Shown in pieces: positions 14,592-17,984 of a DNA stretch of 32,660 nt. The translations under genes and the position numbers were made by a program. The stretch spans positions 1 through 32,660 of the forward strand of contig NZ_AJHH01000675.1 of the NCBI RefSeq assembly GCF_000256565.1, in the 5' to 3' direction. The notes under the pieces are model-generated. The model made no database searches. It worked only from the letters and a program-made list of their open reading frames with translations, and had not been told where the DNA came from. Source of the DNA: Herbaspirillum lusitanum P6-12. GTDB taxonomy: Bacteria; Pseudomonadota; Gammaproteobacteria; Burkholderiales; Burkholderiaceae_D. Every line of letters begins with the position of its first letter. Position 1 is the stretch's first letter.

Positions 14592-15863
14592 CTATTCCCG
14601 GATCCCGACTGTTGTCTTGGGACGATGCTCGACATGATTCCACGGGGCAATTTTCAGCAACATGACCATCCCGGGAAGCGCCAGGATGAAGCACAGGATG
14701 AAGAAGTTGAACCAGCCCATATAGGCGACGATGTACCCCACCGATGAATTGACGAAGGTGCGCGGCACCGCCGCCAGGCTGGTGAACAGGGCAAATTGCG
14801 TGGCCGTATAGCGCGGATCGGTTTCGCGCATGATGTAGGCGACGAAGGCCGCGGTGCCAAGGCCGACGCCGAAGGCTTCAATGCCGATCACCACCGCCAG
14901 CGCTACCGTGCTGGCGCCGACCTGGGCCAGCCAGGCGAAACCGAGGATCGCCACCGCCTGGACCACGCCAAACACCCACAGCGCCTTGTTGATGCCGAGC
15001 CGGATCATCCAGACCCCGCCGATGATGCCGCCCACCACGCTGGCCCACAGGCTGGTGGTTTTCGACACCACGCCGATCTGCGTCATGGAAAAGCCGAGAT
15101 CGATGTAAAACTTGGTCGCCAGCGCGGTCGCCATGCTGTCGCCGAGCTTGTAGAGGAAGATGAAGGCCAGCACCCACAGCGCCTTGCTCCAGCCGCCGCG
15201 CGTGACGAATTCGCGGAACGGCAGCACCACGGCTTCGCGCAGATTCTTGGGCGGCACGCCGTAGACCACGGGCTCTTTGACCGCCAGCGTGCACAGCAAA
15301 CCCGGCAGCATGAAGCCGGCCGTGATCCAGAACACGGACTGCCACGGCATCAGATCGGCCAGCACCAGCGACAAGGCGCCGGGCACCATGCCCGACAACT
15401 TGTACGCGTTGACGTGGATGGCGCTGCCCAGGCCGAGCTCTTCTTCCGGCAGGATTTCACGGCGGTAGGCGTCGACGACGATGTCCTGGCTGGCCGACAG
15501 GAAGGCCACCACCGACGCCATGAACGCGATCGTGCCGATCTGGGTCTGCGGATCCAGCATCCCCATGCCGCCGATGCCGAAGAACAGGCCGATCTGGGTA
15601 AACAACATCCAGCCGCGCCGGCGCCCCATGCGGCCGAAATGGAAACGGTCCATCAGCGGCGACCACAGGAATTTCCAGGTGTAGGGAAACATCACCAGCG
15701 CAAACAAGCCGAGCGCCTTGACGTTGAGCCCCGACTTGGCCAGCCAGGCCTGCAACAGGCTCAGCAGGATGAACAGCGGCAACCCCGAGGTGAAGCCCAG
15801 AAACACGCAAATCAGCATGCGACGGTTGAGATAGCTGTGCCATGAAATGCGGTTATCGGTCAT
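14592..15863 (-). CDS. AmpG-like MFS permease (muropeptide transporter family)
   Basis: A 423-residue polytopic membrane protein of the major facilitator superfamily. The N-terminal CVFLGFTSGLPLFIL, the loop MDRFHFGRMGRRRGW and the SASQDIVVDAYRREIL segment are typical of AmpG, which imports anhydromuropeptides for cell-wall recycling and, where ampR/ampC exist, beta-lactamase induction. About 12 membrane segments are visible. ATG 15863 (MTDNRISWHSYL) was chosen because upstream codons are out-of-family; it has no good ribosome-binding site. It lies between metW and the tRNA-tuf promoter, about 150 bases after metW. The exact substrate cannot be read from the sequence. Confidence 0.8.
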   Translation of the reverse strand: MTDNRISWHSYLNRRMLICVFLGFTSGLPLFILLSLLQAWLAKSGLNVKALGLFALVMFPYTWKFLWSPLMDRFHFGRMGRRRGWMLFTQIGLFFGIGGMGMLDPQTQIGTIAFMASVVAFLSASQDIVVDAYRREILPEEELGLGSAIHVNAYKLSGMVPGALSLVLADLMPWQSVFWITAGFMLPGLLCTLAVKEPVVYGVPPKNLREAVVLPFREFVTRGGWSKALWVLAFIFLYKLGDSMATALATKFYIDLGFSMTQIGVVSKTTSLWASVVGGIIGGVWMIRLGINKALWVFGVVQAVAILGFAWLAQVGASTVALAVVIGIEAFGVGLGTAAFVAYIMRETDPRYTATQFALFTSLAAVPRTFVNSSVGYIVAYMGWFNFFILCFILALPGMVMLLKIAPWNHVEHRPKTTVGIRE

Positions 15864-16015
15864 AGAAAAGGATCGGGGATCATCAGTACATGCGTCTGTG
15901 CATGCGAGAAGAACTCCGCCCGCGGGAAAGCTCGGGCGAAGACGTCTGCGGAGTATAAGGAATTTGCCGGCGCCGGTACGATTTTTCCTGCTGCTGCGGC
16001 AATGAAGATGGCGCC

Positions 16016-16611
16016 TTACTTCTTCTTGAGGCGGAATACCGCCAGGCTGCCGCGCCAGTTCGGCAGGAAGGTCACCGGCTTGCCGTCGTGCAGCGCCACG
16101 CATTCCAGCACGTTGAGCCCCACCTCGTTGGCCAGCGCTTCGAAGTCCTTGATCGTGGCGCAACGCAGGTTGGGCGTGTCGTACCACTCGTAGGGCAGCG
16201 ATTTCGACACCGGCATGCGACCGCGCAGCAACGCGACCCGGTGCGACCAGTAGGCGAAGTTGGGGAAGGATACGGTGGCTTCGCGGCCGACCCGGGCGAT
16301 TTCGCGCAGGATGCCTTCGACGTCCTTGACCATCTGCAGCGCCGACAGGCACAGGACGTTGTCGAAGGCGTTGTCTTCGAACATGGCCAGGCCGCCTTCC
16401 AGATCCTGCTGGATTACCGACACGTTGCGCGCCACGCATTGCGGGCGTCGTCGATTTCAATGCCGTAGCCGCTGCAGGCCTTGTCGGTCTGCAGGTAATC
16501 GAGCATCACGCCGTCGCCGCAGCCGACGTCAAGCACCTGCGAGCCGGCCGGAATCCAGTGCGCGATGAAGGCCAGGTCGGGGCGCAGTACGCTCAGTTCA
16601 GGGAAATTCAT
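16016..16611 (-). CDS. metW: Methionine biosynthesis protein MetW, frameshifted
   Basis: MetW is a class I methyltransferase-fold protein found paired with MetX; recent work on other bacteria links it to MetX activity or stability. The start ATG at 16611 overlaps the metX stop (ATGA). The first part is in frame: [15 protein letters not shown], then the SAM-binding-type motif [12 protein letters not shown] and GYGIEIDDA. Near 16440 the frame breaks, and the direct reading stops soon after, inside 16414-16440. The rest of the protein ([16 protein letters not shown] to the Lys-rich end at 16016) continues in another frame. About 10 missing bases would restore a 201-residue product, a normal length. 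Either a sequence error or a recent inactivation. Confidence 0.88.
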
Positions 16612-17747
16612 GCGCTCTCCTCCATGGCGATTTCCGCCCAGACGCGTTGATAGTATTCGCGCAGCAAGGTCATGTAGCGCGCATCGTCCAGCAGGAAGGC
16701 ATCATGCCCGTGCGGCGCGTCGATTTCGGCATAGCTGACGCGGCGCTTGTTGCTGACCAGCGCCTGCACGATTTCTCGCGTGCGCTCCGGCGAGAAGCGC
16801 CAGTCGGTGGTGAACGAAGCCAGCAGGAATTGCGCCTTGGTGCCGGCCAGCGCCTTGCGCAGATCGCCGCCGAAGTCGCGCGCCGGATCGAAATAGTCGA
16901 GCGCCTTGGTGATCAGCAGATAGGTGTTGGCATCGAAGTAGGTCGAGAATTTGTCGCCCTGGTAACGCAGGTAGGATTCGATCTCGAAATCCACGCCGTA
17001 GCCGAACTGGTATTCGCCCGAGCGCAGGTCGCGGCCGAATTTTTCCGCCATGTCGTCGTCCGACAAGTAAGTGATGTGGCCGACCATGCGCGCCACGCGC
17101 AAGCCGTTTTTCGGCACCACGCCGTGCGCATAGAAATCGCCGCCGTGGTAATCCGGATCGGTCAGGATCGCCTGGCGCGCGACGTCGTTGAAGGCGATGT
17201 TCTGCGCCGACAGTTTCGGGGTCGACGCGATCACCACACAGTGGCGCAAGCGATCCGGATACATGATGCTCCACGCCAGCGCCTGCATGCCGCCCAGTGA
17301 GCCGCCCATGACGGCGGCGAAGCAGGTGATGCCCAGGCGGTCCGCCAGGCGGGCCTGGGCATTGACCCAGTCTTCCACCGTCACCACCGGGAAATCGGCG
17401 CCGTAGGGCTTGCCAGTGGCCGGATTGGTATGCATCGGGCCGGTCGAGCCGAAACAGGAGCCGAGGTTGTTGACGCCGATGACGAAGAATTTGTCGGTGT
17501 CGAGCGACTTGCCGGGTCCGACCATGTTGTCCCACCAGCCGACGTTGTCGGGCTCGTCCTTGTAGACGCCGGCCACGTGGTGCGAGGCGTTCAGCGCGTG
17601 GCACACCAGCACGGCATTGGACTTGTCGGCATTGAGCGTGCCGTAGGTCTCATACATCAGCACGTAGTCGGCCAGCGCCGTGCCGTTCTTGAGCGGCAAC
17701 GGCTCGGGGAAATGCATGATTTGCGGCGATACGATTCCGATCGACAT
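16608..17747 (-). CDS. metX: Homoserine O-acyltransferase
   Basis: This alpha/beta-hydrolase-fold enzyme activates homoserine by O-acylation, the committed step of methionine synthesis. The 379-residue product is full length. The nucleophile elbow GGSLGG gives Ser150, and the triad is completed by Asp315 (FTTDWRFSP) and His348 (PHGHDAF). Family members labelled MetX use either acetyl-CoA or succinyl-CoA, and proteobacterial ones are often succinyltransferases, so the acyl donor is left open. ATG 17747 follows a modest AGAGAG site. The stop overlaps the metW start. A long structured leader with an intrinsic terminator precedes it and probably controls both genes. Confidence 0.95.
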
Positions 17748-17949
17748 GGGCTCTCTTCGTTATCTTGCGGTTATGTCCGTCTACCGATTCAGGGGCCCGA
17801 AAACAAAAAAGCCCGGAGCTTGCGCTCACGGGCTAAATTCTGGGCTTGTCTGATATTGCACCAAGCTCGCTTTAGCCGTATTTAGATGGAACCCGGGGTT
17901 CCGGCGCCCGCAAGCTGAGGTTTGGAGAAACCATTCAAATCGGCGCAGT
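17748..17949 (-). promoter_or_regulatory. metX 5' leader: candidate transcription attenuator or riboswitch
   Basis: About 200 bases lie between a predicted start site (about 17949) and metX. The RNA can form GGTTT/AAACC (17920-17933) and GGAACC/GGTTCC (17887-17902) hairpins, then a perfect intrinsic terminator at 17800-17834. Two upstream segments are exact complements of the terminator. AGCTTGCG (minus, 17916-17909) pairs with CGCAAGCT (17824-17817), and GAGCTTG (17868-17862) pairs with CAAGCTC (17822-17816). Either pairing would break the terminator. A 20-codon frame (17872-17934) has no Met codons and no ribosome-binding site. I do not recognise a SAM-I, SAM-II or SAH consensus. Confidence 0.6.
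17800..17834 (-). terminator. Intrinsic terminator inside the metX leader
   Basis: AGCCCG and CGGGCT (17810-17815 and 17829-17834) plus GAGC and GCTC pair around a 4-base loop, with one bulged base at 17828. On the minus strand the stem is followed by TTTTTT-G-TTTT. It ends about 50 bases before the metX start, a space in which no promoter is visible, so transcripts for metX must read through it. Confidence 0.9.
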
Positions 17950-17955
17950 GGTGTA

Positions 17956-17984
17956 AGGATAACCAAGTCGGGGCATGCCGTCAA
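17956..17984 (-). promoter_or_regulatory. Sigma-70 promoter upstream of the metX leader
   Basis: On the minus strand TTGACG (17984-17979) and TATCCT (17961-17956) are separated by 17 bases, matching 5/6 and 4/6 of consensus. It lies between the ptsI stop and the leader hairpins, so initiation near 17949 would produce the full structured leader. This separates metX-metW expression from the upstream phosphotransferase genes. Confidence 0.65.

What the first reader, a model, noticed from the sequence alone, without database searches (positions are those of the whole stretch)
17748..17984. metX leader with promoter, mutually exclusive stems and intrinsic terminator: candidate new methionine-responsive RNA
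A promoter (TTGACG-17-TATCCT) starts a leader of about 200 bases that ends in a perfect intrinsic terminator only about 50 bases before metX. Two separate upstream segments, AGCTTGCG and GAGCTTG, are exact complements of the terminator core, so an antiterminator fold is possible. No Met-rich leader peptide is present. The layout is that of a riboswitch or protein-controlled attenuator, and I do not recognise a known SAM or SAH aptamer in it.
Basis: partly seen in the sequence, partly recalled or inferred. Interest (0 to 1): 0.62.

Follow-up and report, generated by a model that had tools for sequence, protein, structure and literature searches.

The report
SAM-II riboswitch variant upstream of metX
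The leader in front of a methionine-synthesis gene looks like a SAM-II riboswitch, an RNA sensor that should switch the gene off when S-adenosylmethionine is plentiful; it carries two extra hairpins that hide it from the standard RNA database, so it belongs to a known class in a disguised form rather than to a new class.

Summary
In detail: promoter TTGACG-17-TATCCT, a leader of about 200 nt and a strong intrinsic terminator lie before metX (minus strand). The leader is not a new aptamer class: 17947-17862 is a SAM-II (SAM_alpha) aptamer with two inserted hairpins (17932-17919, 17902-17888). Rfam 15 does not report it even at E<=10, but a covariance model from 24 relatives outside the genus finds it as the only strong match in the genome (68.4 bits; next 19.8). 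An insert-free relative with the same core letters (L049) passes Rfam's SAM_alpha cut-off; others score just below it. The leader precedes metX in all 34 genomes examined of the genus (Herbaspirillum); the core precedes metZ, metH, metK and other methionine genes elsewhere. Likely mechanism: without SAM, pseudoknot strands pair with the terminator's 5' half; SAM binding ties them up, the terminator forms and metX is off. Leyn et al. 2014 described what is probably this element ('metXZ') as novel, without a ligand; Rfam's 'Bp2_287 sRNA' appears to be its antisense strand. I found no paper linking either to SAM-II. Verdict: new variant of a known class, plus a likely identity for an orphan RNA. 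SAM binding is untested.

The parts
17979..17984 (-). -35 hexamer TTGACG
17956..17961 (-). -10 hexamer TATCCT; start site inferred at about 17947-17950, at the 5' edge of the aptamer
   Evidence: start site is inference
17862..17947 (-). SAM-II-type aptamer with two inserted hairpins, plus the first tail bases
   Evidence: model R1 built without the genus, 68.4 bits, E 1.5e-15
17942..17946 (-). P1 5' strand GCGCC
17936..17941 (-). GATTTG, L1 third strand of the ligand-site triplex
   Evidence: invariant in A1; matches RF00521 consensus
17919..17932 (-). inserted hairpin H1 GGTTT-CTCC-AAACC within L1
   Evidence: (this insert: shuffle p 0.04)
17910..17915 (-). GCTTGC, 5' strand of the P2 pseudoknot
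17904..17908 (-). P1 3' strand GGCGC
17888..17902 (-). inserted hairpin H2 GGAACC-CCG-GGTTCC between P1 and L3
   Evidence: (this insert: shuffle p 0.085)
17868..17884 (-). TAAATAC-GGCTAAAGCG: L3 and 3' strand of P2 (ligand site)
17862..17866 (-). GCTTG, inner stem of the proposed antiterminator, 5' side
   Evidence: predicted fold
17844..17848 (-). CAAGC, inner stem of the proposed antiterminator, 3' side
   Evidence: predicted fold
17831..17837 (-). TTTAGCC, exact complement of GGCTAAA (17877-17871), overlaps the terminator 5' arm
17817..17824 (-). CGCAAGCT, exact complement of AGCTTGCG (17916-17909) in the aptamer
17805..17834 (-). intrinsic terminator: arms 17834-17829 and 17815-17810, inner stem, U-tract 17810-17805
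16608..17747 (-). metX, homoserine O-succinyltransferase, the controlled gene

Best explanation
The leader is a SAM-II-class riboswitch that controls metX by transcription termination. RNA polymerase starts a few bases before P1. When SAM is scarce, GGCTAAA (17877-17871) pairs with TTTAGCC (17837-17831), helped by GCTTG:CAAGC and AGCTTGCG:CGCAAGCT; this occupies the 5' half of the terminator and transcription runs into metX. When SAM is plentiful it binds the P1/P2 pseudoknot, GCTTGC and GGCTAAAGCG are locked in P2, the terminator forms and metX is off. Two hairpins inserted in loops outside the conserved ligand-site letters extend the aptamer without changing that site. Shown here: homology to SAM-II, conservation, promoter, terminator, complementarity, gene context. 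Inferred: SAM as ligand, the OFF direction, the start site and the exact antiterminator.
For: R1, a covariance model from 24 family members with the own genus left out, hits the 4.9 Mb genome once strongly: window 17947-17862, 68.4 bits, E 1.5e-15; next best 19.8 bits, E 0.04. Insert-free members: L049, with the window's core letter for letter, scores 40.6 bits against RF00521 (cut-off 36), and L048, with some other letters, 40.6; L050, L051, L053, L055 and L118 score 32.2-35.8, just below. R2, a model of nine insert-free members, matches the window in two parts, 26.9 bits (its P1 laid on H2) and 13.7 bits (GATTTGA, a 14-nt insert, then the CAGCTTGCGGGCGC side). All 34 genus copies, found by DNA similarity, carry GATTTG, GCTTGC and GCTAAA. 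Pair counts on 20 distinct genus sequences: 99.7% of cells paired, 5 pairs (all in H1 and H2) with double changes, 0 of 500 shuffles as high, slid versions lower (the structure was drawn on the window, which favours it in the slid control). H2 folds at -1 kcal/mol or better in 69 of 69 distinct inserts, 45 of 69 at shuffle p<=0.05; H1 in 33 of 45, 16 of 45 at p<=0.05. metX follows in 88 of 102 copies. Complements in the tail: 43 of 102 carry the 7-mer complement (2.8 expected), 20 of 102 GCCCGCAAGC (0.02), 11 of 102 CGCAAGCT (0.18). A terminator-like hairpin with T-run follows in 91 of 102 (own script, no shuffle control).
Against: RF00521 does not report the window at gathering or at E<=10. 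The best RF00521 match in this genome is a sub-threshold one elsewhere (C98, 22.6 bits), where R1 finds nothing at E<=1 (L120). P1 and P2 never vary in A3, so they give no covariation. The 3' helix P2a, 5 bp in 60% of SAM-II (PMC6061858, passage), has no clear equivalent of that length here. The nascent-fold test (terminator arm paired to the aptamer: genus mean 0.77, 34 of 34 at 0.5 or more, 72 of 91 overall) exceeds shuffles (0.33) but hardly the order-reversed control (0.68 in the genus; over all 91 the control is higher, 0.65 against 0.60), so base composition explains much of it; the 'locked' result follows largely from the constraint itself. In the 68 copies outside the genus only 33 have any of the three exact complements. 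These counts come from related sequences and are not independent. No binding or expression data.
Confidence: 0.87

Rival explanations
1. A new aptamer class for a methionine-related ligand, resembling SAM-II only by chance.
For: Rfam 15 misses it even at E<=10; Leyn 2014 treated a beta-proteobacterial metX/metZ leader RNA as novel and distinct from SAM_alpha.
Against: L049, with the same core letter for letter, is over the RF00521 cut-off; the conserved SAM-II segments are present in order; methionine and SAM genes lie downstream.
Confidence: 0.04
2. A SAM-II relative whose ligand or sense has changed, for example answering to SAH or another adenosyl compound.
For: Two large inserts; no clear P2a; no biochemistry on this variant.
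Against: The ligand-site letters are invariant in the 20 genus sequences of A3 and, GGCTAAA's first G apart, in A1, and the genes are mostly methionine- and SAM-synthesis genes.
Confidence: 0.05
3. Only the terminator of the upstream ptsI transcript, with incidental complementarity.
For: ptsI lies upstream in 34 of 34 genus copies and 41 of 68 others.
Against: 13 copies outside the genus have aptamer and metX without a ptsI match in the upstream stretch held; a conserved promoter stands between ptsI and the aptamer; the same aptamer precedes metH, metZ, metK and others.
Confidence: 0.02
4. A protein-controlled attenuator (RNA-binding repressor) or a DNA operator for SahR or MetR.
For: Not excluded by any motif scan, none was run; inverted repeats such as GGAACCCCGGGTTCC look like operators.
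Against: H2 changes its sequence and keeps its pairing, unlike an operator; the conserved letters are those of an RNA aptamer.
Confidence: 0.02

Closest known systems
SAM-II riboswitch (Rfam RF00521, SAM_alpha)
   Same: P1, GATTTG L1 strand, GCTTGC and GCTAAAG P2 strands, AAA in L3, position before met genes, terminator platform (reported as the usual one for SAM-II in alpha- and beta-Proteobacteria, PMC2258182; most SAM-II transcriptional, PMC6061858; passages read). SAM-II is already in print as present in Beta- and Gammaproteobacteria (PMC2704228, passage)
   Different: Two inserted hairpins; where the alpha consensus has CGGCC/GGCC (P2a region) the window offers only CAGC/GCG (my reading); not detected by the Rfam model
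SAM-II long loops (RF01726; PMC2864571, table row and passage)
   Same: Named as a SAM-II form with longer loops
   Different: Listed for Bacteroidetes and marine sequences; not among the matches on the window at gathering or at E<=10; where its loops are enlarged was not examined
metXZ RNA element (Leyn et al. 2014, PMC4239095; abstract, passages and section 10 read)
   Same: Beta-proteobacterial leader of metXW or metZ, proposed pseudoknot, downstream terminator
   Different: Described there as novel with no ligand; its alignment (Figure S2) is not held here, so identity is inferred from gene, lineage and layout
Bp2_287 (RF02424; Khoo et al. 2012, PMC3521395, passages and section 17 read)
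   Same: Element upstream of methionine genes (metX, metZ) in Burkholderiales, proposed there as cis-acting
   Different: The Rfam model lies on the opposite strand: antisense to the aptamer in 8 of 8 coincident matches, all below its gathering score

Membership tests
SAM-II riboswitch | P1 helix enclosing L1 | tested here: met
   GCGCC/GGCGC paired in 20 of 20 genus sequences, invariant, so no covariation
SAM-II riboswitch | Pseudoknot P2 between L1 and the strand downstream of P1 | tested here: inconclusive
   Complementary letters present and invariant in 20 of 20, so covariation cannot support or refute it
SAM-II riboswitch | 3' helix P2a (5 bp in 60% of SAM-II, PMC6061858) | tested here: inconclusive
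   No 5-bp equivalent seen by eye in the window or in A1; a short form cannot be excluded
SAM-II riboswitch | Ligand-site letters (triples G8-C23-G42, U11-U21-A45, U12-U20-A46; PMC3764141) | tested here: met
   GATTTG, GCTTGC and GGCTAAA invariant in A3; register taken from the RF00521 alignments; the 2QWY sequence used for numbering was recalled, from no call
SAM-II riboswitch | Detected by the Rfam RF00521 model (an operational criterion, not a structural one) | tested here: not met
   Window not listed; 20 loci with at least one insert, 11 genera: 0 of 20 at E<=1; insert-free L048 and L049 pass; of 20 of the 30 best R1 loci in the class 4 pass
SAM-II riboswitch | Controls methionine or SAM genes | tested here: met
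   88 of 102 copies before metX; of 20 downstream proteins scanned 19 match methionine, SAM or aspartate-kinase/homoserine families best, 11 of them over the curated cut-off, 8 below (6 of those cut by the locus end); the one outsider is over its cut-off
SAM-II riboswitch | Selective SAM binding | not testable with these tools
   needs in-line probing or ITC
SAM-II long loops RF01726 | Match to its model | tested here: not met
   not listed
metXZ element | Before metX or metZ in beta-proteobacteria with a terminator | tested here: met
metXZ element | Its six conserved sequence regions | not testable with these tools
   the alignment is in a supplement (Figure S2, named); supplement look-ups are capped at 0

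The most novel reading that the evidence does not exclude
A structural subclass of SAM-II in which two freely evolving hairpins are added to the classical pseudoknot and change its folding speed or SAM affinity to suit co-transcriptional termination. This form, with its insert-free sisters, would be the main methionine switch of beta-proteobacteria, largely overlooked because it is held as an orphan element (metXZ), as an antisense 'sRNA' (RF02424), or not at all. (Odds set at 0.3 because SAM-II in beta-proteobacteria as such is already in print and no function of the inserts was tested.)
Probability: 0.3. Interest if true: 0.6.

Novelty: new variant of a known kind. Interest (0 to 1): 0.47.

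Why it matters
It probably gives a ligand (SAM) and a mechanism to an RNA element published in 2014 without one, shows that the current Rfam SAM_alpha model misses insert-bearing copies (0 of 20 found) and many insert-free ones (4 of 20 pass), and suggests that the sRNA family RF02424 is annotated on the wrong strand. It also supplies a natural series (no insert, H2 only, both) for testing how peripheral helices tune a small pseudoknot aptamer.

Tried and rejected
Rfam at gathering and at E<=10 on the window leader: only weak matches far below their gathering scores. Consensus terminator scan: did not list the real terminator. Nascent-fold sequestration: not clearly above the order-reversed control, so I rest the antiterminator on exact complementarity, itself not phylogenetically independent. 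P2 covariation: none available, the letters never vary. The paper search for 'SAM_alpha' with Betaproteobacteria found nothing although PMC4239095 uses the term; it is not used as evidence of absence. Statements that I found no paper linking metXZ or Bp2_287 to SAM-II rest on searches of the open library only; of the papers listed there I opened passages of PMC2258182, PMC2704228, PMC2864571, PMC4239095, PMC3521395, PMC10907184, PMC9481103 and PMC6061858 and saw PMC11218506, PMC5780412 and PMC7392346 only as listings.

Rows dropped: the pattern script gave 107 rows; 5 with a wrong upstream GATTTG or GATTTA in the same loci were left out, giving 102 distinct copies. The pattern requires GATTTG or GATTTA, GC[TA][TA]GC and GCTAAA, so it cannot measure how often these vary. 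Among the loci without a row, L052 is a further SAM-II-like site with other core letters (56.3 bits with R1) and L085 holds two partial matches (32.2 and 31.6 bits); L094 has the core of L091 and L119 is the place of L054 again (L094 by eye). A1 was built from 24 chosen copies; A3 from 20 distinct sequences of the own genus, without L102 and L103 (left out by name). RF00521 matches at E<=10 (276 of 294 genomes, and 13 of 14 control genomes) are mostly noise; 2 of 294 genomes pass the cut-off. Searches used stricter filters that lose weak matches. Of 31 loci listed, 19 downstream proteins were scanned (plus the window's) and 12 were not, among them L198, whose nearest ORF I did not identify.

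Full report
What was checked. The finding covers the leader of metX on the minus strand (metX 16608-17747). The leader matches in 34 of 34 genomes of the genus, the own one included. In a wider DNA search 186 of 294 genomes of the GTDB family gave a match at E<=0.1; these were not checked one by one. The genus is Herbaspirillum by two contigs that share length and aptamer letters with named records (G021:C15 with L164, both 93,210 bases; G030:C49 with L213, both 8,883).

What it is. Reading the leaders side by side shows a core, GCGCC-GATTTGA-x-CAGCTTGC-GGGCGC-y-AAATACGGCTAAAGCG, with variable x and y; 64 of 102 distinct copies have these letters exactly. Where x and y are short, Rfam's SAM_alpha model scores the element: L049, with exactly these letters, and L048, with some changes, reach 40.6 bits (cut-off 36), and L050, L051, L053, L055 and L118 32.2-35.8. 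In the window x and y hold hairpins of their own. A covariance model (R1) from 24 family members without any own-genus sequence finds the window once in the whole genome at 68.4 bits, next best place 19.8. A model from nine insert-free members (R2) matches the window in two parts, with its P1 laid on H2 in the stronger one. The match is therefore to SAM-II with two insertions.

The inserts. Of 102 copies 71 carry both inserts and 14 more the second alone, by length. H2 (17902-17888) folds in 69 of 69 distinct inserts, with unrelated sequences in different genera; 45 of 69 reach shuffle p<=0.05, the window's own p 0.085. H1 (17932-17919) is less uniform: 33 of 45 distinct inserts fold at -1 kcal/mol or better and 16 of 45 reach p<=0.05 (the window's own 0.04); several inserts of metH copies do not fold. 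Within the genus, 5 pairs of these two helices change on both sides, and none of 500 shuffles reaches the observed values. Both lie in loops outside the triplex letters G8, U11, U12, U20, U21, C23, G42, A45 and A46 reported for the crystal structure 2QWY (PMC3764141, passages; my mapping uses a recalled 2QWY sequence), so the ligand site is intact. How the inserts stack on the pseudoknot is unknown.

Why Rfam misses it. At E<=1, 0 of 20 loci with at least one insert, from 11 genera, were reported as RF00521. Among 20 of the 30 best R1 loci of the class, insert-free or nearly so by match length, 4 pass the cut-off. R1 finds a match at E<=0.01 in 135 of 274 sampled genomes of the class.

What it controls. 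metX follows in 88 of 102 copies (34 of 34 in the genus, 54 of 68 outside). NCBIfam was run on 20 downstream proteins: the window's and 19 chosen because metX was not seen. Best matches over the curated cut-off: MetX (window), O-succinylhomoserine sulfhydrylase (L048, L161, L179, L183, L216), MetH (L186), MetK (L191), betaine-homocysteine methyltransferase (L196), cystathionine gamma-synthase family (L163, L210), and one outsider, threonine 3-dehydrogenase (L212). Best matches below the cut-off: MetH in L050, L087 and L097, O-succinylhomoserine sulfhydrylase in L167, homocysteine synthase in L170 and homoserine dehydrogenase in L175 (all six cut by the locus end), aspartate kinase in L197 and MetN in L205.

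How it works. The start is inferred a few bases before P1, because the promoter ends 8-10 nt before the P1 letters in 77 of 102 copies. A terminator-like hairpin with T-run follows in 91 of 102. Of the 11 without one, nine, all of one genus that includes named Undibacterium contigs, carry TTTTAGCCTTCC and a later GGAAG, which could mask a ribosome-binding site, suggesting a translational form; this is inference from sequence. In the window three pairings compete with aptamer and terminator together: GGCTAAA:TTTAGCC, GCTTG:CAAGC and AGCTTGCG:CGCAAGCT (predicted fold). Exact complements of the aptamer strands are far above shuffle expectation (7-mer, GCCCGCAAGC and CGCAAGCT in 43, 20 and 11 of 102 against 2.8, 0.02 and 0.18); 30 of 34 genus copies and 33 of 68 others have at least one. 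The counts are inflated by common descent. The thermodynamic version of the test did not discriminate against reversed tails. I take the antiterminator as likely, its exact form as open, and the OFF direction from the SAM-II literature.

What is known. Barrick and Breaker 2007 (PMC2258182, passages; [quoted passage not shown] The 2010 survey of 104 candidate RNAs (PMC2864571, passages) lists a long-loop SAM-II in Bacteroidetes and marine sequences. Leyn et al. 2014 (PMC4239095, abstract, passages and section 10) report SAM_alpha only in Rhizobiales and Rhodobacterales and describe a novel 'metXZ' RNA before metXW or metZ in 35 beta-proteobacterial genomes with a pseudoknot and terminators. Gene, lineage and layout agree with the element studied here, but I could not see their alignment. 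The 2012 Burkholderia sRNA paper (PMC3521395, passages and section 17; first author Khoo, recalled) lists Bp2_Cand287 as an RT-PCR-tested candidate upstream of methionine genes. Its Rfam model RF02424 lies antisense to the aptamer in 8 of 8 coincident matches; in a scan of 97 family genomes 23 of 42 listed matches overlap an aptamer site, each on the opposite strand, the other 19 lie elsewhere, and none passes its cut-off (my comparison by coordinates). I found no paper that makes either link to SAM-II (searches; open-licence papers only).

Verdict. Observation confirmed; 'new methionine-responsive RNA' not supported as a new class; the element is best read as a SAM-II variant. It is ordinary in class and useful in consequence: it likely names the ligand of an orphan element and exposes a blind spot in annotation.

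Noticed in passing
L048, L049, L050, L053, L055; L066, L102, L108; family scan: Rfam family RF02424 (Bp2_287, 'Burkholderia sRNA') matches the strand opposite to the SAM-II aptamer each time the two were seen to coincide; the family looks mis-stranded. All matches are below its gathering score, and 19 of 42 lie elsewhere.
   Followed up: partly
L050, L076, L087, L092, L097, L104, L105, L109, L112, L113, L115, L117, L118: A SAM-II aptamer followed by a terminator precedes a metH-like gene in several genera of the family, in some genomes as a second copy beside the metX one (G050, G143). NCBIfam was run on L050, L087 and L097 only; the others are judged by their first residues.
   Followed up: partly
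G418:C37:37949-38119, G384:C2:263695-263864, G508:C81:6481-6650, G547:C6:272764-272927; L198:604-841: Two SAM-II-type matches lie about 45-105 bases apart in the same orientation: possible tandem SAM-II riboswitches, an arrangement already in print (44 examples, PMC9481103, passage). G547 has eight matches in all.
   Followed up: no
L071, L072, L077, L078, L080, L082, L084, L095, L114 (genus g32, including named Undibacterium contigs): No terminator found; TTTTAGCCTTCC stands where the terminator 5' arm would be and can pair with a downstream GGAAG before the start codon, suggesting a translational version of the same switch.
   Followed up: partly
L052:1512-1569 (-): A further SAM-II-like site in the same genome as L084 (G267), with other core letters (CAGATTGC, GCTAAAAGGACC) nearer the alpha consensus; its downstream gene was not examined.
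   Followed up: no
L205, L238, L253 (Legionella species): The exact aptamer core lies in Legionella contigs with a longer spacer at the H2 position; in L205 and L238 it precedes an ABC-transporter ATPase gene (best match MetN for L205, below cut-off; L238 by its first residues).
   Followed up: partly
window 15312-15401 (-): ARAGORN reports an odd tRNA with a four-base anticodon inside an ORF (14592-16460); Rfam does not list it at gathering, so it is probably a false call.
   Followed up: no
G000:C98:17094-17155 (-): Best RF00521 match in the window's genome outside the leader, 22.6 bits, below cut-off; model R1 finds nothing there at E<=1, so probably chance.
   Followed up: partly
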